Of a stretch of DNA of 64,000 bases, positions 3,006 to 63,811 are shown piece after piece. Below the pieces are notes generated by a model that saw only the letters and a list, made by a program, of their open reading frames with translations, was not told the origin of the DNA and searched no databases. Numbering within the stretch: the first letter of the stretch is position 1; every line of letters begins with the position of its first letter. The stretch comes from Vicinamibacterales bacterium (GTDB lineage: Bacteria; Acidobacteriota; Vicinamibacteria; Vicinamibacterales; Fen-181), in NCBI GenBank assembly GCA_036504215.1, contig DASXVO010000039.1, positions 1 through 64,000 of the forward strand. The letters are read 5' to 3'. A program made the translations under genes and the position numbers.

Positions 3006-3236
3006 GTTGGTGCTGAAGGTGCTGGAGGTGCTGCGGGTGCTACGGGTGCTGGTGCTGGGGGTGCCGGGGGTGCTGCGGGTGCTGCAGGTGCGCAGCCGGC
3101 AGCACCGCACCTGCAGCACCAGCAGCACCAGCAGCACCAGCAGCACCTGCAGCACCCGCAGCACCAGCAGCACTTGTAGCACCTTCAGCACCGCACCTGC
3201 GGCACGATCAGCACCTGTAGCACCTTCAGCACCTGT
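3006..3236. repeat. Snap-back minisatellite array A (GGTGCTGNN units)
   Basis: About nine 9-base units of the form GGTGCTGNN run rightwards from about 3008 to 3094. The sequence then switches to the reverse complement form (NNCAGCACC) for about fifteen units up to about 3236, followed by a run of ten or more C. The two halves can pair into a long imperfect hairpin. The array lies between moxR and the DUF4350 gene on the minus strand. The last codons and the stop of the DUF4350 gene fall inside it (TGA at 3228-3226). Arrays of the same build occur near 52.6 and 62.4 kb. The function is unknown. Confidence 0.85.
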
Positions 3237-4401
3237 CCCCCCCCCCCGCCCTCCGTGCAGCCTGAGTCCCTCCGGCCAGCCGATAGAGCGCCTGCACCAT
3301 CCGCAGCGCCTCTTTTGCGCCGAGGTTCGGGTTGTCGCGCGCCGCTTGGCAACGGCGGAGCGTCGGAGCGAACGAGTCGTCCTCGACGTGCCAGCGTTCG
3401 CGAAGCGCGCGTTCCAGATCTTCGACGGGTGTGTTGATGGCCATCCCGAGCCGCCGGCACAGCTGATAGCGAAAGCGCTGGTGGCAGATGTCCACTGCCA
3501 CCGAGGCCGCGTTGGCGTGCTGGTACAGCCCCCCGAGCGTCTGCACGAACTCGAGCGGCGACAGCCGCACGTCGGCGAGTGGCGCCAGCACGGGACCGCT
3601 GCGCCTGGCGAAGGTCACGAGCACCGCCAGCGCCAGGATCGCGCCCTGCGCGCCGAGCCAGACGAGCGGCGTTCGAACGGCCGACCGGCCGGTCGATTCC
3701 TGGTAGCCGTGGAAGTACTCGTCCCACAGGATCTGCCGGCCCTCGCGCTCGCCGAGGCACGCCAGGAAGAACTCGAGGTTCGCGGTCTCGCGGAGGCCCG
3801 CGTTGGTGAGTGGCGTGGCCGACGCCCACCAGATGATCTCGCCCTTCCCCATGCCGTATCGCACGGCCACGATTCGCCGTTCCGCGGTGTAGAGCGGTGT
3901 CGCCGACGTCTGCTCGGCCCAGTAGGCGCGGGCGACGAGCGTAATCTCGCGGGCCGCGCGTGTCGGGCCGGCTGGTGACACGGCCGTGGCCTTCTCCCAC
4001 GTGAGCACCCACGGGCGCGGCACGATGGACGCCTCGGGCAGGAAGGCTCCGGCCATCGGGCCGGTGGCCACCACGCGCCCCCCTGACTCGACGAAGAGAC
4101 GAAGTCGGGCGGTATCCCGCTCGGTCGGTGCGCCCGTCGGCTCCGCGAGCACGAGCGTCGTCCTGCTCGGATCGGGCAGTTGCCGCAACTCGCGCTCCCA
4201 CCGCGTGACGCGGTAGCCCATGTCCTGCAGCAGGAGGTATGCAGCCCTGGCACCCGCCGATGCCGTGGAATACGTCGTCGGCACCTCGCTCTTCACGCCC
4301 TGGCCGGGCGTGAGGAAGATGGCGCCCATGACGAGGGCCAGGAACACCAGGCCGACCATCAGCAGCGTCCGGCGGTCGCTGCGATTCAGCGCGGTCGACA
4401 T
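3226..4401 (-). CDS. DUF4350 domain-containing membrane protein
   Basis: This 391-residue protein has one N-terminal transmembrane helix (about 11-31). Next comes a periplasmic domain resembling DUF4350: Y-S-T-A-S-A-G-A-R-A-A-Y-L-L-L-Q-D-M-G-Y, then LRLFVESGGRVVATGP. A second helix lies near residues 245-262 and a cytoplasmic tail follows. It belongs to the MoxR/DUF58/DUF4129 locus. Its start overlaps the end of the DUF4129 gene by 16 bases. The final residues (G-D-R-C) and stop are supplied by the C-tract and edge of repeat array A, so the repeat has probably reset the 3' end of this gene. The biochemical role is unknown. Confidence 0.85.
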   Translation of the reverse strand: MSTALNRSDRRTLLMVGLVFLALVMGAIFLTPGQGVKSEVPTTYSTASAGARAAYLLLQDMGYRVTRWERELRQLPDPSRTTLVLAEPTGAPTERDTARLRLFVESGGRVVATGPMAGAFLPEASIVPRPWVLTWEKATAVSPAGPTRAAREITLVARAYWAEQTSATPLYTAERRIVAVRYGMGKGEIIWWASATPLTNAGLRETANLEFFLACLGEREGRQILWDEYFHGYQESTGRSAVRTPLVWLGAQGAILALAVLVTFARRSGPVLAPLADVRLSPLEFVQTLGGLYQHANAASVAVDICHQRFRYQLCRRLGMAINTPVEDLERALRERWHVEDDSFAPTLRRCQAARDNPNLGAKEALRMVQALYRLAGGTQAARRAGGGDRC

Positions 4402-12126: not shown

Positions 12127-15100
12127 ATGTCTGAGACTACCGCCGGCGCCAGCGCGGAACTCGTCATCCGCGGCGCCCGCACGCACAATCTCAAGAACAT
12201 CGATCTCACCCTTCCGACCAACGCGCTGGTGATCATCACCGGCGTCAGCGGGTCAGGGAAATCCTCGCTCGCCTTCGACACGATCTACGCCGAAGGTCAG
12301 CGGCGCTACGTCGAGTCGCTGTCGGCGTACGCCCGGCAGTTCCTCGAACGGATGGAGAAGCCGGACGTTGACCAGATCGACGGCGTCTCGCCCGCGATTG
12401 CCATCCGGCAGAAGAACAGCATCCGCAACCCGCGCTCGACCGTCGGCACGACGACCGAAATCCACGACTATCTGCGCCTCCTCTATTCGCGGGTCGGCCG
12501 GACGTTCTGCCGGAACTGCGGGCAGGAGGTCATTCGCGAGAGCCCCGAGGTGGTCGCCCGGCGCCTGGCGACGCTTCCCGAGGGGACCCGGCTCATCATC
12601 GGGTTCGAGATGCCGGTCGTGGCCGCCCCGAAGGCCGGACCCGCGGAAGGCCCAGACACGCCCGAGACCTCCGACGAGGTCGCGGAGGCCGCCGCTGCCG
12701 ACGCGGACCTCCTGAACGGTCGCGGCGGGCACGACCAGGCCGACCGAGACGGCAGCGGGGATGGCGGCGGGAATGGGCACGGGGCCAACGGCAACGGCAC
12801 GAACGGCCAGAGCGCGGACCCGGTGACGGCAACACTCGAGGCCCTGCGCCGCCGGGGGTTCGGCCGACTGCTGATTGGCGGACGCGCCGCGGTGTCGTTC
12901 GACGATGTGGAGGTGGCGCTGCTCGAGGACCGGTCGACCCTGCACGTCGTCGTCGATCGGTTGCGGATCCAGCCCGACATGCTGACGCGTCTCACCGATT
13001 CGATCGAGACGGCGTACGGCGAAGGCGGCGGGGCGGCGTTCGCACTCGAGGTGCCGGAGACCGGTGGGCGCGAGGCGTCCTCCGGGCCGGGCGCCGGCAC
13101 GCGGCACGTGTTCTCCGAGCGCTTCGAGTGCCGCGCGTGCGGCATCGCGTACGAGGACCCGCAGCCACGCCTCTTCTCGTTCAACAATCCGTTCGGCGCC
13201 TGTCCGACGTGCCACGGATTCGGCAACATCATCGAACTCGACATGGATCTCGTCGTGCCGGATCCGACGCGGTCGATCCAGGACAACGCCATCGAGCCGT
13301 GGAGCAAGCCCCACTACCGGACGAGCCTGGCAGAGCTGAAGCGGGCGGCACGACAGCACGACGTGCGCCTCAACGTTCCGTGGGCCGACCTCACACCGGA
13401 GGAGAAGCGGTTCGTCGTCGAAGGTGATGGCGCGGAGTACGAGGGCGTCCGCGGCTTCTTCGCGTGGCTGGAGCGGAAGAAATACAAGGTGCACGTCCGG
13501 GTGTTTCTGAGCCGTTACCGCGGCTACCAGACGTGTCCCGATTGTGGCGGGGCGCGGCTCCGGCGCGAGGCCCGCGACGTCCGCGTCGGCGGCCGGACGA
13601 TCGACGAGGTCTGCCGTCTGACCGTCCGCGAGGCGCAACGCTTCTTCGGTGAGCTGCAACTCGGCGCGCGTGAAGCCACGATTGCCGAGAAGGTGCTGGC
13701 CGAGGTTCGCCGGCGCCTGTCCTTCCTCGGCGAGGTGGGCCTGGACTACCTGACGATCGACCGGCTGTCGTCGACGCTGTCCGGGGGGGAATCCCAGCGG
13801 ATCAACCTCGCGACCTCCCTTGGCTCGGCGCTGGTCGGGACGCTCTACGTGCTCGACGAGCCGTCGATCGGCCTGCACCCGCGCGACAACCTGCGGTTGA
13901 TCGAGATCCTCCGCCAGTTGCGCGACCAGGGCAACACGGTGCTGGTGGTCGAGCACGACGCGGACATGATTCGGGTGGCCGATCACATCGTCGATCTCGG
14001 GCTGGGTGCGGGCGAACAGGGAGGGAAGGTCGTCTACTCGGGGACGTTCGACGGCCTGCAGCACGAGCAGCGGTCGCTGACCGCCCGATACCTGCGGGGC
14101 GAGCTGTCGATTCCCCTGCCCCACGAGCGGCGTCGCGGGACGGGACAGCGGCTGCGAATCCTGGGCGCGAGCGAGCACAACCTGAAGAAGATCGACGTGA
14201 CGATCCCGCTGAATACGCTGACGTGCGTCACCGGCGTGAGCGGGTCCGGGAAGTCCACGCTCGTCCACGACATCATCTACCCGGCGATCAAGCGGCTCAA
14301 GGGTGATTGGGAGAAGAAAGTCGGCTCACATCGCGGAGTGTCGGGGGCCGAAGCGATCACCGATGTCGTGCTGGTGGACCAGGCACCGATCGGCCGGACG
14401 CCGCGCTCGAACCCGGTGACCTATCTCAAGGCGTTCGACCCGATCCGCGAGCTGTTCGCGTCGACCAAGGACGCGCGCTCACGCGGCCTGACGGCCAGCC
14501 ACTTCTCGTTCAACGTGCCCGGCGGCCGCTGCGAGACCTGCGAGGGCGAAGGGCAGATTCGCGTCGAGATGCAGTTCCTGGCGGACGTGTTCGTGCCGTG
14601 CGAGCAGTGCGACGGCAAGCGGTTCAAGCCGCAGGTACTCGACGTGCGCTACCGCGGCAAGAACGTGCACCAGGTGCTGGACCTGACGGTGCGCGAGGCG
14701 CTGACGTTCTTTGCCGGATCGGCAAAGGTCCTGCGACGGCTGCACGTGCTCGACGAGATTGGCCTCGGCTACCTGCGACTCGGCCAGCCCGCGACGACGC
14801 TCTCGGGCGGAGAGGCCCAGCGCATCAAGATTGCCGCGCACCTCGCGTCGCGCACGGGCGATCGGCTGCTCTACATCCTCGACGAGCCGACCACCGGCTT
14901 GCACTTCGACGACATCGCGAAGCTGCTCGCCGCCTTCCGCAAGCTGCTGCAGGCGGGCCACTCGTTGCTCGTCATCGAGCACAATCTCGATGTCATCAAG
15001 ACCGCCGACCACGTGATCGACCTTGGGCCCGAGGGCGGCGAGGACGGCGGCTGGATCGTGGCCGTCGGCACGCCGGAGGAAGTGGCCGCCATCGACGCCT

Positions 15101-15144
15101 CCCACACCGGCCGCTACCTTCGGCCTCTCCTCAGCCGGGAGTGA
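12127..15144 (+). CDS. uvrA: Excinuclease ABC subunit A
   Basis: The 1005-residue product is UvrA, the damage-recognition ATPase of nucleotide excision repair. The first ABC module has Walker [15 protein letters not shown] near residue 40 and signature [17 protein letters not shown] with [15 protein letters not shown]. The second has [13 protein letters not shown] and [17 protein letters not shown] with [12 protein letters not shown]. Zinc-binding pairs are visible (CRACG...CPTCHG and CETCEG...CEQCDG). It is longer than the usual roughly 940-960 residues because of a Gly/Asn/Asp-rich insertion at about residues 162-238 in the first module. uvrC lies 9 kb downstream. The ATG at 12127 was preferred over an upstream extension that lacks homology. 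Confidence 0.97.
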
Positions 15145-28608: not shown

Positions 28609-28637
28609 CGGCTGGTTGAGGGTGGCGGCGGTAAGAC

Positions 28638-28759
28638 GGTGGAGTGACGCGGGCGGCCACGGTGGAGTGCGACGGGCGGCCATGGTGGAGTGGCACGGGC
28701 GGCCACGGTGGAGTGGCACGGGCGGCCATGGTGGAGTGGCACGGGCGTCTCGCCCGTGC
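28638..28759 (+). repeat. 23-bp tandem repeat ending in a hairpin, upstream of scpB
   Basis: Four full copies of a 23-base unit (GGTGGAGTGGCACGGGCGG plus CCAC or CCAT) start at 28638, 28661, 28684 and 28707. A partial fifth copy at 28730 runs into the palindrome GCACGGGCG-TCT-CGCCCGTGC at 28739-28759. The array fills the scpA-scpB gap. The palindrome type is familiar from intergenic regions of Acidobacteriota and Planctomycetota, which is recollection rather than a search result. Confidence 0.85.
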
Positions 28760-44465: not shown

Positions 44466-44545
44466 ACGGAAAACGGAAAACGGGGAACGGAGAACCGAAA
44501 ACGGCATCTTCGACCCGTTCTCCGTCCCTCGTCCCCCGTTCCTCG
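44466..44545. repeat. A/G-rich low-complexity repeat with inverted second half
   Basis: The left part repeats ACGGAAAACGG and GGGGAACGGAGAAC (44466-44504). The right part carries the reverse complement sense (GTTCTCCGTCCCTCGTCCCC, about 44517-44545). The layout is again snap-back. Weaker relatives are seen at 35691-35725 and 20881-20960. Confidence 0.55.
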
Positions 44546-44573
44546 ACTCCCGCCGCGGCCGCCGAGCGGCTGG

Positions 44574-52281: not shown

Positions 52282-52587
52282 ATGGCCAAGCTCGAGTCCG
52301 AACTGGAAGTGACCTGCCCGTGCTGCAGCGCTGTTCTGGTGTTCGACACGAACCTCGGCCGGGTCATCTCGCACAGTGAACCCGAGCGAGAGGACAAACC
52401 CGATCTGGATGCCGCGCAGCAGATTCTCGCTGAAGAGAAAGCCCGCCGCGAGGCGGTGTTCCTGCAGTCGGTCGAGGCGGAGAAGACGCGAGGTGACGCG
52501 CTCTCCAAGCGGTTCGAGGAAGCCTTGCGGCAGGCCCGCGAGGGCCCCGTCGGCCCGCCACCGAAGCGGGGGTTCGAGCTGGACTGA
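52282..52587 (+). CDS. Zinc-ribbon protein with helical tail, function unknown
   Basis: The 101-residue product begins MAKLESELEVTCPCCSAVLVFDTNLGRVISH, where Cys12, Cys14 and Cys15 could bind a metal or Fe-S cluster. A charged helix follows (A-A-Q-Q-I-L-A-E-E-K-A-R-R-E-A-V-F), ending in a basic Pro-rich tail. I know of similar uncharacterised proteins in Acidobacteriota but no function. The array at 52599 starts right after its stop. Confidence 0.7.
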   Translation: MAKLESELEVTCPCCSAVLVFDTNLGRVISHSEPEREDKPDLDAAQQILAEEKARREAVFLQSVEAEKTRGDALSKRFEEALRQAREGPVGPPPKRGFELD

Positions 52588-52598
52588 GACGGGAATCG

Positions 52599-52780
52599 GG
52601 TGCTGAAGGTGCCTCGGGTGCCATAGGTGCTGAAGGTGCGGTGCCGGGGGTGCTGAAGGGGCCGGGGGTGCCGCACCTCAGGCACCGCACCTTCAGCACC
52701 AAGCGTCGCCAGCACCTTCAGCACCTTCAGCACCGCACCTTCAGCACCCGTAGCACGTCCAGCACCCGCAGCACCTGTAC
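52599..52780. repeat. Snap-back minisatellite array B (GGTGCTGNN units)
   Basis: Units such as GGTGCTGAA, GGTGCCTCG and GGTGCCATA run from 52599 to about 52670. They then switch to the complement form (TTCAGCACC, CGCAGCACC) up to about 52776, followed by a C-tract. The array lies between convergent genes, and the C-tract supplies the 3' end and stop region of the transglutaminase-like gene. Structure and right flank match array A closely. Confidence 0.85.
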
Positions 52781-52786
52781 CCCCCC

Positions 52787-53437
52787 TCATCCCCCCTCCG
52801 CCAGGTCCGTCCAGTGTTCCCGGCCGCGGTAGTCAACGGGCTTGCGACCCGGGTTCTCACGTCTGAACGCGAAATAGCGGCGTCGAAGCCGGTCGATCCG
52901 CGCGTCGGACGACCGGATGGGACGGTGCGGGTACTCGAGCAGCAACCGCTCGATCTTCCAGACGTTCTTCTCCGAGAGCCGCCAGTCGTAGTCGCCCAGG
53001 ACTCGCAGATCCACGACGGCGTAACCGGTGATCCGCCCCGTGAAATCGACGTACGGTTCCTCGTAGCTTCGCGCCAGCGCCCGCGCCGTCCGGAACACCG
53101 GCTTGCGCCCGTGCAGGCCCGGATCGCGCGACCGTCCGACTGAGCCCCACCGGCCCTGGCGTCGATACACGAACAGCACGTGATCCAGCTCGTCGATCGA
53201 CTCGAAGCTGAGGACGAGCGGCGGGTAGCCGTGCGCCTCGAGAATGACGGCTGCCGCCAGCGCGGCCTCGAGACAGTGCGCCGTGCCGAGCCGCACCACC
53301 TGCCTGAAGCTCCTCAATGTCGGGCCCCCGGGCGGGGGCTCGGTGTTGTACGGCAGCGAGTTGAGATAGCACTGGACCCGGTCCGGCGTCGGCAGGCGCC
53401 GCACCAGGGCACGTTCGGACGAAGAGAACTCAGCCAC
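52787..53437 (-). CDS. Transglutaminase-like cysteine protein
   Basis: The 216-residue product has a segment like the transglutaminase core: GTAHCLEAALAAAVILEAHGYPPLVLSFES with nucleophile Cys, then DELDHVLFVY with His, and SRDPGLHGRKP with a possible Asp. The C-terminal part is basic and aromatic. It overlaps the end of the acyl-CoA ligase gene by eight bases (GTG start at 53437), so it is coupled to the aromatic amino-acid operon, though its role there is unclear. Its last codons derive from the C-tract flank of array B. Confidence 0.72.
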   Translation of the reverse strand: MAEFSSSERALVRRLPTPDRVQCYLNSLPYNTEPPPGGPTLRSFRQVVRLGTAHCLEAALAAAVILEAHGYPPLVLSFESIDELDHVLFVYRRQGRWGSVGRSRDPGLHGRKPVFRTARALARSYEEPYVDFTGRITGYAVVDLRVLGDYDWRLSEKNVWKIERLLLEYPHRPIRSSDARIDRLRRRYFAFRRENPGRKPVDYRGREHWTDLAEGG

Positions 53438-55664
53438 GTCCCTGTCGCGCCGCCACGAAGACGTTGAACAGGCGCAGGGCGGTGTCGGCGGCACGGAACG
53501 TCGGGACGCCGTGGCGCTCGAGCAGCGCGGCGAGCGGATCGTAGAGGGCGCCGGCATCGATCACCGCCACCCACGCCTTCGACAATTCCCGCTTCAGCCG
53601 CACGAGCCGCGGCCCAATCGCGTCCGGCTTGGTGAGGTCGTCGCGGTGGCCGTCGCCGGCGGGCAGGCTGTTGAGCGCCGAGGTCAGCGGCACGCAGCCA
53701 ACGATGCCGACGTCGACGTTGTCGGCTTCCATCACCGCACGCACGACGTGTTCGTAGGCGGCATCGCCGGTCATCGGCGTCAGGTCGATCGGATTGTGGA
53801 CGTCGACGACCGAGTCGATTCTGGCTTCGCGATAGATGGCCTCGAGCCGCGCCGAGGTGGCCGCGTCGAAGGTCGGCAGTTCGAACCGGCCGAGCGTGTC
53901 GGCGATCGCCACGCACTCGAACCCCGCGTTCGAGATGGCGCCGAGACGGGTTCCATCGGCGCGCTTGCCGCGGAGGAACGTGAACAGTCGGACGAGTTCC
54001 TCGAAGTCCCCGATGGACTCCGCGACGACGACGCCGGCCGCCCGGGCCAGTTCCCGCGTCACCGTGTAGTCGCCGGCGATGGACGCCGTGTGGCTGGCCG
54101 AGGCCTTGGCGCCTGCCGCGGTGCGACCGGCGCGGTACAGGATCACGCTGCGCCCGCTCGCGGTGATCTCCCTCGCCGCCCGCAGGAAGGTCAGCCCATC
54201 CAGCTTCGCGAACCCCTCGATGTAGACGGCGAACACCTCGAGACTCGGGTCGTCCTTCAGGTAGGTCAGGTAGTCGCCAACCGTCAGGTCCATCTGGTTC
54301 CCGCACGTGATGGCGTATTTCGGGTTCAGCATCCCGAGCTTGCTCATGCGGGCCACGGCGAACGCGCCGCTCTGCGACACGAAGGCGACCGGCGAGACCT
54401 CGCCCGAGGGCACCGGCAGCTTGTACTCCGGAATGAACATCGTGTCGTAGTGGCCGGGCAGCGACCGAACACCGAGACAGTTGCCGCCGTTGATGAGCGG
54501 TCCCTGCCACGTGCTGGCGCGCGCCGACGCCAGTGACTCGCGCATGCGTCCGACAATGGCCTCGGTGCCGGACTTCTCTTCGAGGCCGCCCGGAATCACG
54601 ATGATGCTCTCGGCCTTCTGCCCCTCGACGATGTCGGTGATCGCCTGTGGCGTCTGCGCGGCGGAGACGGCCAGGATGAACAGATCCACCGTGCCGGGGA
54701 TCGACACGATGTCCGGCACGCATCGGCAACCTTCGATGTCGGCGCTGCCAGGCTTCACGACGACGATCCGGTCGCGTGGAAACCCCTCGCGGATCAGGTT
54801 GTTCAGGATGATGTGACCGGGGTTCAGCTTCTCGCTCACGCCGATGATGGCCGCCGAGCGGGGCTCGAGCAGGTGTTTCAGCTTGCCGAGCGGCCGAGAC
54901 GGCTGTGCGGGCACCTGCCCGGTGCCGAGCTTCACGAGGATGTCGAGCGCCGTCAACCGGCCGTCGCTGATGACGAGCGGGTTGATCTCGCACTCGACGA
55001 TCTCCTCGGGCGCGAACGCGCTGGCGAGCGCCGTGAACCGCCGGACCGCGTCGACGATGGGGGCCACGGCGATGCGCGGCGCCTGGCCCCTCAGCCGCCC
55101 GGTCGCCAGGCGTCCGACGGCCAGCCGCGCGATGGCTTCGCGAATCTCGTCATCGTGCGTGACGGTGGGGGAGAAGATGCCGATCTCGCGTCCGGGCTTG
55201 AAGTTCTCCGCCAGGAACTCGGTATAGATCCCGCCTGCGCCGAGCGTGACGACCGGGCCGAAGTCATCCGTCCACCGGAGCCCGAGGATCAACTCGTTGC
55301 CGAGCGAGGTGTCGTATCTGGCAAACTGGTTGATCGTGAATCCGACGACGTGCGGGCCGCCCAGGCGCGCCTCCATGTCGCGGATCGTCGCGGCGATTGC
55401 GTCGCGCCGGTGCTCCACGATCTTCACGCCGCCCACATCGCTCTTGTGCAGAATCTCCGGCGAGATGACCTTGATGACGACACGATCGCCAGCGAGCGCC
55501 GTCGTGTCGGCCTGCGCCGCCTGCTCCGCATTCGCGACGAACACGTGCGCCGGCGCGCCGATGCCAATCGCCTGCAGCAGTTCCAGCCCCTCGGTCTCGA
55601 GGAGGACGCTGCGCGGGCGTGCCGAGGCGATGACCTGTGCAATCCGCCCGGAGTCGATCGTCAT
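53430..55664 (-). CDS. NDP-forming acyl-CoA ligase (fused ACD-type)
   Basis: The 744-residue protein fuses both parts of NDP-forming acetate/aryl-CoA ligase. It starts with an ATP-grasp domain (VVIKVISPEILHKSDVGGVKI, GAGGIYTEFL). A CoA-binding Rossmann domain follows (LEPRSAAIIGVSEKLNPGHIILNNLI), then succinyl-CoA ligase-like domains (SPVAFVSQSGAFAVA, KASASHTASIAGD with the phospho-His region). It makes ATP or GTP from an acyl-CoA and releases the acid. The four-base overlap with iorB suggests that it works on arylacetyl-CoA from the indolepyruvate oxidoreductase. Confidence 0.92.
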   Translation of the reverse strand: MTIDSGRIAQVIASARPRSVLLETEGLELLQAIGIGAPAHVFVANAEQAAQADTTALAGDRVVIKVISPEILHKSDVGGVKIVEHRRDAIAATIRDMEARLGGPHVVGFTINQFARYDTSLGNELILGLRWTDDFGPVVTLGAGGIYTEFLAENFKPGREIGIFSPTVTHDDEIREAIARLAVGRLATGRLRGQAPRIAVAPIVDAVRRFTALASAFAPEEIVECEINPLVISDGRLTALDILVKLGTGQVPAQPSRPLGKLKHLLEPRSAAIIGVSEKLNPGHIILNNLIREGFPRDRIVVVKPGSADIEGCRCVPDIVSIPGTVDLFILAVSAAQTPQAITDIVEGQKAESIIVIPGGLEEKSGTEAIVGRMRESLASARASTWQGPLINGGNCLGVRSLPGHYDTMFIPEYKLPVPSGEVSPVAFVSQSGAFAVARMSKLGMLNPKYAITCGNQMDLTVGDYLTYLKDDPSLEVFAVYIEGFAKLDGLTFLRAAREITASGRSVILYRAGRTAAGAKASASHTASIAGDYTVTRELARAAGVVVAESIGDFEELVRLFTFLRGKRADGTRLGAISNAGFECVAIADTLGRFELPTFDAATSARLEAIYREARIDSVVDVHNPIDLTPMTGDAAYEHVVRAVMEADNVDVGIVGCVPLTSALNSLPAGDGHRDDLTKPDAIGPRLVRLKRELSKAWVAVIDAGALYDPLAALLERHGVPTFRAADTALRLFNVFVAARQGRG

Positions 55665-56233
55665 GCCGCCGCCTCCCGCCCCGACCGAAACGCCTCGAGG
55701 TTCGTCTCGACGATCTTCTCGCCCTTCGCGGCGAACACGGTCTGGATGTAGTGCTCGAGCGTTTCGACCTTCACTGGCAGGTGATGCGAGGCGGCGCCGA
55801 CCATGACCATGTTGGTGGCGCGCGCCGAGCCGGCGGCCCGCGCGAGCTTCTCGCCGTCCACCAGCCGGGCGTGCGGCAGCGCCCGAATATGCCCCAGCAG
55901 CTCCTCGAGGTCCGGGTAGTCCGGGATGTTGACCATCGGGTTGGTGGACGTGATCACCGCGCCGTCGGTCGACAGGTACTTCAGGTACCGCAGGCTCTCG
56001 AGCGGTTCCATGCTCAGGATCATCGACGCGGATCCGAGCGGGATCAGGTCGCTGGCAATCGGCGCGTCGGCGAGCCGCAGGTTCGCGAGCACGGCGCCGC
56101 CGCGCTGTGACATGCCGTGGACCTCGGACTGCTTCACGAACAGCCCTTCCTTCATCGCGCTCGACGCGATGATGGCCGAGACCGAGAGCACACCCTGTCC
56201 TCCGACGCCGGCAAGGATGATGTCGTATTTCAC
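55661..56233 (-). CDS. iorB: Indolepyruvate oxidoreductase subunit beta
   Basis: The 190-residue gamma-type subunit begins YDIILAGVGGQGVLSVSAIIA, with the family segment KQSEVHGMSQRGGAVLANLRL. It pairs with IorA to decarboxylate indolepyruvate and related aryl pyruvates to aryl-acetyl-CoA. GTG start after AGAGGTCACC. A longer upstream reading frame is a shadow of iorA. The 53-base gap to iorA carries a small GGCTCCA repeat. Confidence 0.93.
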   Translation of the reverse strand: MKYDIILAGVGGQGVLSVSAIIASSAMKEGLFVKQSEVHGMSQRGGAVLANLRLADAPIASDLIPLGSASMILSMEPLESLRYLKYLSTDGAVITSTNPMVNIPDYPDLEELLGHIRALPHARLVDGEKLARAAGSARATNMVMVGAASHHLPVKVETLEHYIQTVFAAKGEKIVETNLEAFRSGREAAA

Positions 56234-56245
56234 TGGTGACCTCTT

Positions 56246-56287
56246 CAGGCTCTGGACTCCAGGCTCCAGGCTCCAGGCTCTGGGCTC
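56246..56287. repeat. Short CAGGCTC(C/T) tandem repeat between iorA and iorB
   Basis: Copies of CAGGCTCT, CAGGCTCC and CAGGCTCT follow one another in the iorA-iorB gap; on the coding strand they read GGAGCCTGGAGCC. Similar GGAG-rich repeats precede the starts at 22220 and 63812. Confidence 0.6.
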
Positions 56288-60718: not shown

Positions 60719-62353
60719 ATGCGCGCCAGTCGTGTGTTGCTGATGATGCTACTGATCATCGGGTTGAGCGGTGTGCTGTTTGCCGCGCCGCCGCAGAAGC
60801 CCGTGAAGGGCAAGGCGTCCGTCGTCGCGCCCGTCGATGCGCGGCTCGAGGTATTGAAACGCGACCTCGCGACGGAGATCGACGGGCTGAAGGATCTCAC
60901 CCAGCAGATGGTCGATTCGATCTTCAGCTTCGGGGAAGTGGGCTTCCAGGAGTTCGAGACGAAGAAGTACTGCGCCGGCATCCTGAAGTCGAACGGGTTC
61001 GCGGTCGACGAGAACGTGGCAGGGATGCCGACCGGGTGGACCGCGCGGTGGGGGTCGGGCAAGCCGGTGATCGCGCTCGGCTCCGACGTGGACGGTCTGC
61101 TCGGGACGTCCCAGAAGCCTGGCATTCCGCGCCACGAACCGTTCATCGAGGGCGCGCCGGGCCACGGCGAGGGCCACAACACGGGCATCCCGTTGAGCAT
61201 CACGGCGGCGCTCGCGCTGAAGAAGGTCATGGAGCGCGAGAAGATCCCGGGGACGATCGTGGTCTGGCCGGGCATCGCCGAGGAACTCGTCGGCGGCAAG
61301 GCGCAGTACGTGAAGGCCGGAGTGTTCAAGGACGTGGACATCTGCCTCTTCTCGCACATCTCGTCGAACTTCGGTGTGAGCTGGGGTGATTCGAGTGGCA
61401 CGGGCCTCGTGTCGGTCGAGTACTCGTTCACCGGGCAGAGTGCGCACGCCGGCGGCGCGCCCTGGCAGGGGCGCAGCGCGCTCGATGCCGTCGAGTTGAT
61501 GGATGTCGGCTGGAACTTCCGCCGCGAGCACCTGCGCTTGTCGCAGCGCTCGCACTACGTGATCACCGACGGCGGCGGCCAGCCCAACGTCGTGCCACCG
61601 ACGGCGAGCGTGTGGTACTACTTCCGTGAGATCGACTACCCGCACATCAAGGACATGTGGAGCCTCGGCAACACGATGGCCGAAGGCGCGGCGATGATGA
61701 CGGGCACCACGGTGACGTCGCGGCTGCTCGGGTCGGCGTGGCCGCAGCACATGAACAAGACGGTGGCCGAGACGATGTACGCGAACATCCAGAAGGTCGG
61801 GATGCCCCCTTGGAGCGAGGCGGACCAGGCGTTCGCGAAGATCGTGCAGCGGGCGATGAAGGTGAAGGACCAGGGGCTCCTGAAGGAAGTCGGGAAGCTC
61901 GAAGGCCCGGTCAAGCTCGAGGACAACCGCGGCGGCGGCTCCGATGACATCGGCGACGTGTCGTGGACCGTCCCGACGGTCACGCTCCGGTATCCGGGCA
62001 ACATTCCAGGCATGACCGGCCACCACTGGTCGAGTGCGATCGCGGAGGCGACGCCCGTCGCCCACAAGGGCGTGACCACCGGTGCGAAGGTGGAGGCGAT
62101 GACGGCGATGGATCTGCTGGTCAAGCCGGAGCTGGTCCAGCAGGCGTGGGAGTACTTCAAGAACGTCCAGAGCAAGGATGTGAAGTACCAGCCGTTCCCG
62201 GGCGAGAAGGACAAGCCGGCCACGTGGCTGAACGAGAAGCTGATGATGCAGCTTCGGCCCGAGATGCGGAAGTTCTACTACGAGCCGGGAAAGTACAAGA
62301 CGTACCTCGAACAGCTGGGCATTGCGTACCCGCCGGCCGAGACGAAGCAGTGA
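60719..62353 (+). CDS. Secreted M20-family amidohydrolase/peptidase (AbgB-like)
   Basis: The 544-residue product has a signal peptide (MRASRVLLMMLLIIGLSGVLFA). The M20 core has FSFGEVGFQEFETKKYC, IALGSDVDGLLGT and APGHGEGHNTGIPLSITAALAL with ligands His and Asp. EELVGGK carries the catalytic Glu, and the dimerisation domain is EYSFTGQSAHAGGAPW. It resembles AbgB-type amide hydrolases. The ATG follows AAGGAGTTTCC, the same sequence as before the C69 peptidase. Array C starts right after its stop. Confidence 0.9.
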   Translation: MRASRVLLMMLLIIGLSGVLFAAPPQKPVKGKASVVAPVDARLEVLKRDLATEIDGLKDLTQQMVDSIFSFGEVGFQEFETKKYCAGILKSNGFAVDENVAGMPTGWTARWGSGKPVIALGSDVDGLLGTSQKPGIPRHEPFIEGAPGHGEGHNTGIPLSITAALALKKVMEREKIPGTIVVWPGIAEELVGGKAQYVKAGVFKDVDICLFSHISSNFGVSWGDSSGTGLVSVEYSFTGQSAHAGGAPWQGRSALDAVELMDVGWNFRREHLRLSQRSHYVITDGGGQPNVVPPTASVWYYFREIDYPHIKDMWSLGNTMAEGAAMMTGTTVTSRLLGSAWPQHMNKTVAETMYANIQKVGMPPWSEADQAFAKIVQRAMKVKDQGLLKEVGKLEGPVKLEDNRGGGSDDIGDVSWTVPTVTLRYPGNIPGMTGHHWSSAIAEATPVAHKGVTTGAKVEAMTAMDLLVKPELVQQAWEYFKNVQSKDVKYQPFPGEKDKPATWLNEKLMMQLRPEMRKFYYEPGKYKTYLEQLGIAYPPAETKQ

Positions 62354-62356
62354 CGC

Positions 62357-62526
62357 AGGGGTGCCGGGGGTGCCAGCGGTGCTGAGGGTTCTCGAGGTGC
62401 AGTGCTGAAGGTGCTGGACCTTCAGCACCGCACCCTCAGCACCGCACCCTCAGCACCCCCCGCACCTTGGGCACCTGCAGCACCGCACCCTCAGCACCCC
62501 CAGCACCCTGGGCACCTGCAGCACCT
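62357..62526. repeat. Snap-back minisatellite array C (GGTGCTGNN units)
   Basis: Units such as GGTGCCGGG and GGTGCTGAG extend from about 62359 to 62415. The sequence then folds back at TGCTGAAGGT / ACCTTCAGCA (near 62403-62427) and continues as CAGCACC units to about 62526. It lies between the M20 peptidase stop and the promoter of the deoxyhypusine-synthase-like gene. Same unit and layout as arrays A and B. Confidence 0.85.
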
Positions 62527-62575: not shown

Positions 62576-63787
<1,212 letters not shown>

Positions 63788-63811
63788 TCAGGAGCCAGGA
63801 GTCAGGAGTCC

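What the first reader, a model, noticed from the sequence alone, without database searches (positions are those of the whole stretch)
3006..3236. Dispersed snap-back minisatellites of GGTGCTGNN units at three gene 3' ends
Arrays at 3.0, 52.6 and 62.4 kb share a nine-base unit, and in each the tandem run switches to its own reverse complement in the middle, so each can fold into a hairpin of about 80-110 base pairs. Arrays A and B also share a C-tract right flank. In all three, one arm starts within a few bases of a gene's stop codon. This looks like a genome-wide element class and may act as a 3' mRNA element or as a cruciform-forming DNA repeat. I do not know a described family with this layout.
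Basis: seen in the sequence. Interest (0 to 1): 0.75.

Follow-up and report, generated by a model that had tools for sequence, protein, structure and literature searches.

The report
Dispersed G-rich nine-base repeat arrays
Short gaps between genes in this bacterium have been filled, at about 30 places, by arrays of the nine-base unit GGTGC+NNNN that sometimes sit in facing pairs; it is a new, unusually ordered variant of a repeat type already described in Xanthomonas, and its fixed starting point and preserved five-base core suggest it is more than random stuttering of DNA.

Summary
The three arrays are real and belong to a genome-wide class. About 31 arrays (40 arms) were read, 29 of 30 with gene context being intergenic. 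Four congeners lack the family, a second genus of the same family has it (>35 places), and GGTGC-N4 arrays recur patchily in the order Vicinamibacterales. Only about a third of arrays are inverted, they are not enriched at convergent gene ends, and facing arms match no better than arms from unrelated loci (random pairings fold as well, P=0.71). So the 'snap-back' is two separately founded arrays facing each other, nearly always G-rich arm first (33:1 over eight genomes, heptamer arrays included). The layout is not undescribed: Rehm et al. 2015 report facing pairs of GGGAATC arrays in Xanthomonas. New here: most arms start at a fixed point with a five-core 41-bp block (4x9+5); the GGTGC core is ~98% kept while N4 is randomised between loci; and some orthologous spacers carry unrelated repeat motifs in different species. 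Best reading: a block-structured dispersed tandem-repeat family copied into permissive spacers, hairpin incidental. RAYT, IS91-type and RT mobilisers do not track it.

The parts
3009..3091 (+). array A, left arm (G-rich strand +); first block 4x9+6
3102..3233 (-). array A, right arm (G-rich strand -); first block 4x9+5 starting ACA|GGTGC; its first unit supplies the TGA stop of the DUF4350 gene 3226-4401(-)
3237..3247 (+). C-tract flank of array A (a G-run just 5' of the arm start on the - strand)
   Evidence: G-runs of >=5 in 8 of 40 arm 5' flanks vs 2.6% of background spacer 30-mers
52599..52671 (+). array B, left arm; 11 bp after the stop of ORF 52282-52587(+)
52673..52775 (-). array B, right arm; 11 bp from the stop of ORF 52787-53557(-). 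Orthologous spacer empty in G001/G002, other repeat motifs in G003, G005, G006
52780..52786 (+). C-tract flank of array B
62360..62414 (+). array C, left arm (degenerate); 6 bp after the stop of ORF 60734-62353(+)
62425..62525 (-). array C, right arm, two 41-bp blocks plus a partial one; 50 bp upstream of the deoxyhypusine synthase ORF 62576-63787(+)

Best explanation
A lineage-restricted family of dispersed, G-rich intergenic tandem repeats. The real unit is a 41-bp block of five GGTGC cores (four nonamers GGTGC-N4 plus a last GGTGC), not the nonamer. Copies begin at a fixed 5' end (CA|GGTGC here, TCGTGC in the sister genus) and have a ragged 3' end; they then lengthen in place by duplicating whole blocks. 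They enter permissive gene spacers, where congeners have no array or an unrelated repeat. Facing pairs arise when both edges of one spacer receive an array, each with its G-rich strand reading inward, away from the neighbouring gene. The potential hairpin is a by-product of that layout. Shown: dispersal, block structure, fixed start, local duplication, an empty or differently filled orthologous spacer, independence of the two arms. Inferred: copying from a fixed start as the mode of spread, and the absence of a needed host function.
For: Genome-wide dispersal and absence from congeners. In 34 of 40 arms the first block is exactly 4x9+5/6; by the strict count 28 of 40 first positions against 35 of 333 internal positions. 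Runs of exactly five cores dominate: 51, versus 13 of four and 3 of six. 22 of 40 arms are preceded by CA versus 6% background. Adjacent blocks of one array are 77% identical at variable positions, different loci 51%. Facing arms are not matched. Orthologous spacer B is about 20 bp in G001/G002 and carries other motifs in G003, G005, G006. Arrays have no bias to convergent spacers. In L027 an array plus about 200 bp of downstream sequence is duplicated with its left break at the array start.
Against: No copying machinery identified: RAYT, IS91-type and reverse-transcriptase genes do not follow the arrays. Pure neutrality does not by itself explain why the GGTGC core is kept while N4 is randomised. 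The species compared are roughly 70-90% identical in the matched genes, so exact insertion points and target duplications could not be read. The fixed start in G005 holds in 9 of 22 arms by strict scoring, more only if single-base slips and extra leading units are allowed. In one-armed arrays the rule that the G strand reads away from the nearer gene is only a tendency.
Confidence: 0.55

Rival explanations
1. The GGTGC cores are binding sites: the five-core 41-bp block is a multi-site platform for a DNA- or RNA-binding protein, and arrays are kept because of it.
For: Core ~98% identical between loci while N4 is at its random expectation; the five-core quantum is the mode in G000 (51 runs) and G013 (9 runs, none of three or four); GGTGC-N4 arrays recur in several families of the order with lineage-specific N4.
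Against: No consistent strand, gene arrangement or distance to genes; congeners do without any such array. Recurrence of GGTGC across lineages was found by searching for GGTGC, so it is partly ascertained.
Confidence: 0.2
2. The inverted arrays are selected hairpins: 3' mRNA stabilisers, bidirectional terminators or cruciforms.
For: Very stable folds (z -10.1, -9.1, -5.0); several facing pairs meet at GGTGC-N-GCACC; strong G-arm-first rule (33:1).
Against: Two thirds of arrays have one arm; arms do not match and random arm pairings fold as well (P=0.71); no enrichment between convergent genes; no T-tract after the stems of A, B or C; some arrays lie in divergent spacers.
Confidence: 0.15
3. 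A non-autonomous transposable element (MITE-like) moved by a transposase present in the array-bearing genomes.
For: Fixed 5' end, ragged 3' end, empty orthologous site, duplication starting at the array edge.
Against: No target duplication or unique internal sequence seen; Y1 (RAYT) 1 in G000 and 0 in G005/G013; Y2 (IS91) 0 in all three; RVT_1 1 in G000, 0 in G005. Other transposase classes were not tested.
Confidence: 0.1

Closest known systems
GGGAATC / GGGGA(C/T)T heptamer arrays of Xanthomonas and Nostoc (Rehm et al. 2015, PMC4692102)
   Same: Dispersed G-rich tandem arrays, about 90% intergenic in Xanthomonas, aligned-gene spacers commonest, close to the ORF on the 5' side of the G strand, 70-75 convergent inverted pairs per Xanthomonas genome; function unknown.
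   Different: Unit 7 nt there; 9 nt with constant pentamer and free N4 here, grouped in 41-bp five-core blocks. Xanthomonas positions are mostly conserved between two species; here congeners lack the arrays. GG tracts with 7-nt loops make quadruplexes less likely here (inference).
Mycobacterial interspersed repetitive units (MIRU) (from memory)
   Same: Dispersed intergenic units, tandem at a locus, often in operon spacers touching stop or start codons.
   Different: No 9-bp substructure, no facing pairs, sequence not compared here.
TAACTGA direct repeats of Beggiatoaceae, cyanobacteria and Bacteroidetes (PMC4679880)
   Same: Short dispersed intergenic direct repeats, patchy in phylogeny.
   Different: Two to six copies of one fixed heptamer, mostly in forward orientation to a downstream start, one inverted case only.
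Short tandemly repeated repetitive (STRR) sequences of heterocystous cyanobacteria (from memory)
   Same: Dispersed heptamer tandem arrays.
   Different: Not known to me with a fixed start block or facing pairs.
Tandem repeats of archaeal Borgs (PMC9879509, abstract only)
   Same: Rapidly evolving tandem repeats; in genes they create disordered stretches, compare the in-frame array in L025.
   Different: Borgs are extrachromosomal; repeats there arise independently rather than as one dispersed unit.

Membership tests
Xanthomonas-type G-rich dispersed SSR arrays (Rehm 2015) | G-rich tandem array, mostly intergenic | tested here: met
   29 of 30 arrays with gene context intergenic
Xanthomonas-type G-rich dispersed SSR arrays (Rehm 2015) | facing (convergent) inverted pairs | tested here: met
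   about a third of arrays; G-rich arm first 33 vs 1 over 8 genomes
Xanthomonas-type G-rich dispersed SSR arrays (Rehm 2015) | heptameric unit | tested here: not met
   418 of about 530 core spacings are 9 bp
Xanthomonas-type G-rich dispersed SSR arrays (Rehm 2015) | array positions largely shared between related species | tested here: not met
   four congeners have no such arrays; site B empty in G001/G002
Xanthomonas-type G-rich dispersed SSR arrays (Rehm 2015) | G-quadruplex formation in vitro | not testable with these tools
   needs CD spectroscopy
REP/BIME with RAYT | RAYT (Y1_Tnp) present with the repeats | tested here: not met
   PF01797: 1 in G000, 0 in G005 and G013, 2 each in array-free G003 and G006
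MITE | terminal inverted repeats with target site duplication | tested here: inconclusive
   one-armed arrays have no terminal inverted repeat; no target duplication recognised, but spacers are too diverged to align
IS91/helitron-type rolling-circle element | Y2 transposase in bearing genomes | tested here: not met
   PF04986: 0 in G000, G005, G013; present in array-free G001-G004 and G006
intrinsic terminator | stem followed by T-tract | tested here: not met
   flanks of A, B and C read directly
curated structured RNA | match to an Rfam family | tested here: not met
   no match in the window at gathering score

The most novel reading that the evidence does not exclude
The 41-bp five-core block is a discrete genetic module, recognised through its GGTGC cores by an unknown factor of Vicinamibacterales that writes or copies blocks into gene spacers from a fixed start; each species has its own motif set, and old arrays in the same spacers are replaced by the current motif.
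Probability: 0.15. Interest if true: 0.85.

Novelty: new variant of a known kind. Interest (0 to 1): 0.5.

Why it matters
Dispersed 7-9 base arrays occur in many bacteria, and how one motif reaches dozens of unlinked spacers is not known. This family gives that question handles: a fixed start, a countable block, a core that is kept while its neighbours drift, absence from congeners, and orthologous spacers that carry other motifs in other species. It also corrects a tempting inference: a strong predicted hairpin here is no evidence of hairpin function.

Tried and rejected
RAYT/REP, IS91-type and reverse-transcriptase mobilisation: genes do not track the arrays. Snap-back copying of one arm into the other: facing arms unmatched. 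Enrichment at convergent gene ends: absent. Known RNA family: none. Sense-strand G-richness relative to genes: mixed by eye (about 7 G-sense, 9 C-sense among one-armed arrays in tandem spacers). The genome contigs and viral contigs pattern scans allowed a 6-bp shift, which keeps reading frame, and mostly caught what look like Gly-Ala coding repeats; they served only to name G005 (JARKSS01, Vicinamibacterales; sequence identity checked). Papers naming Vicinamibacter together with intergenic repeats: none held.

Full report
OBSERVATION. The three arrays exist as described. Array A (3009-3233), B (52599-52775) and C (62360-62525) are runs of GGTGC cores 9 bp apart that change to GCACC part-way. 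Their predicted RNA folds exceed all 200 shuffles (z -10.1, -9.1, -5.0), C being much the weakest. In A the first unit of the right arm supplies the stop codon of a DUF4350 gene; B and C begin 11 and 6 bp after a stop.

GENOME-WIDE. The window is part of a 5.92-Mb, 90-contig genome (G000). GGTGCTGNNGGTGCTG occurs 139 times against 1 for the reversed control. Reading 1.19 Mb of it, chosen around the arrays plus unselected stretches, gave about 31 arrays with 40 arms. Roughly a third are inverted, always G-rich arm first; the rest are one-directional. With a simple dicodon gene finder, 29 of 30 are intergenic: 24 between tandem, 3 divergent and 2 convergent genes, not significantly different from all spacers. 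The one array inside a gene, a HerA-like ATPase ORF, has a 6-bp phase shift and stays in frame.

BLOCK STRUCTURE. Arms are not simple nonamer repeats. Runs of exactly five cores dominate (51, versus 13 of four and 3 of six), joined by 5- or 6-bp steps. Thirty-four of 40 arms begin with exactly 4x9+5/6; on strict scoring 28 of 40 first positions versus 35 of 333 internal positions do so. The two bases before the start are CA in 22 of 40 (background 6%). In the sister genus G005 most arms start with TCGTGC and many show the same first block. Adjacent blocks within an array agree at 77% of variable positions, different loci at 51%, which is about what the column frequencies predict by chance, while cores agree at 98%. 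Arms are found by their cores, which inflates that last figure, but mutated cores would appear as 18-bp gaps and only a handful do.

THE TWO ARMS. If the second arm were copied from the first, or if pairing were selected, facing arms should match. At variable positions their first blocks agree at 0.37 on average against 0.51 for unrelated loci (six pairs), and real pairs fold no better than shuffled pairings of arms (P=0.71, eight pairs). The arms are therefore best read as separately founded arrays facing each other. The G-arm-first rule holds across repeat families: in eight genomes, 33 facing pairs of period 5-12 repeats have the G-rich arm first, one the reverse, six neither (a few are overlapping detections of one array). 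Ordinary spacer hairpins lean the same way only mildly (30 vs 17).

RELATIVES. Four congeners and a third genus of the family have no GGTGC-N4 arrays; G005, identified as JARKSS01 of Vicinamibacterales, has more than 35 places. In the order, further bearers are G013 (GGTGCGGGA), G030 and G103 (GGTGCCTNN) and a few weak ones; outside the order only single, probably coding, loci were seen. The array-free relatives have heptamer arrays instead, many facing. At spacer B, G001 and G002 have about 20 bp, G005 a facing CAGGAGT array, G003 a GGCGGTA-type array and G006 other repeats; the spacer at 56233-56287 has a different heptamer in G000, G002, G003, G004 and G005. Over 28 orthologous spacers, the number of species pairs sharing an array-bearing spacer exceeds permutation (14 vs 4.8 pairs, P=0.0016), though the number of spacers with two or more bearers is not raised (3 vs 3.3, P=0.79), so the effect rests on about two spacers.

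MECHANISM. The facts fit copying of a block-structured element from a fixed 5' end with a ragged 3' end, followed by local duplication of blocks, into spacers that tolerate it. An event in L027 is suggestive: an array plus about 200 bp of downstream gene sequence is duplicated 5 kb away, the left break lying at the array start. No mobiliser was found: Y1, Y2 and RVT genes do not follow the arrays. Whether the kept core means function (a binding platform) or a property of the copying is open; I put 0.2 on the former.

KNOWN KINDS. The layout is known: Rehm et al. 2015 found G-rich heptamer arrays in Xanthomonas, about 90% intergenic, near the ORF on the 5' side of the G strand, with 70-75 facing inverted pairs per genome, and could assign no function. 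The present family differs in unit length, constant core with free N4, block structure and rapid turnover between congeners. It is a new variant of that known kind.

Noticed in passing
window 44466-44552: Facing heptamer pair ACGGAAA... then ...CCGTCCC, purine-rich arm first, an unrelated motif with the same layout.
   Followed up: partly
window 56246-56287 and 63786-63810: Short heptamer arrays CAGGCTC and AGTCAGG at gene ends; orthologous spacers carry other heptamers in relatives.
   Followed up: partly
window 28636-28747: About five copies of a 23-bp unit ACGGTGGAGTGGCACGGGCGGCC followed by its partial complement; similar GTGGCACGGGC-type repeats recur in L010, L014, L026, L029.
   Followed up: no
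L027:9736-10152 and 14712-15137: A 426-bp segment (facing array pair plus part of an isochorismatase-family gene) duplicated 5 kb apart, 97% identical, left break at the array start.
   Followed up: partly
L013:8436-10018: 1.58-kb stretch with several arrays where G001 and G002 have about 90 bp; no confident gene inside.
   Followed up: partly
L025:15120-15238: Array inside a HerA-like ATPase ORF, frame kept, encoding a Gly-Ala stretch.
   Followed up: partly
L071, L073, L077, L078, L079, L110, L111 (G005), just 3' of arrays: A REP-like palindrome (GCCTGCCGCGCCGTAGCCGCG...CGCGGCGAAGGCGGG) often follows the array.
   Followed up: no
L080:5222-5402 (G005): Facing nonamer array CACAAAGAA / TTCTTTGTG, an A-rich exception to the G-rich families.
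   Followed up: no
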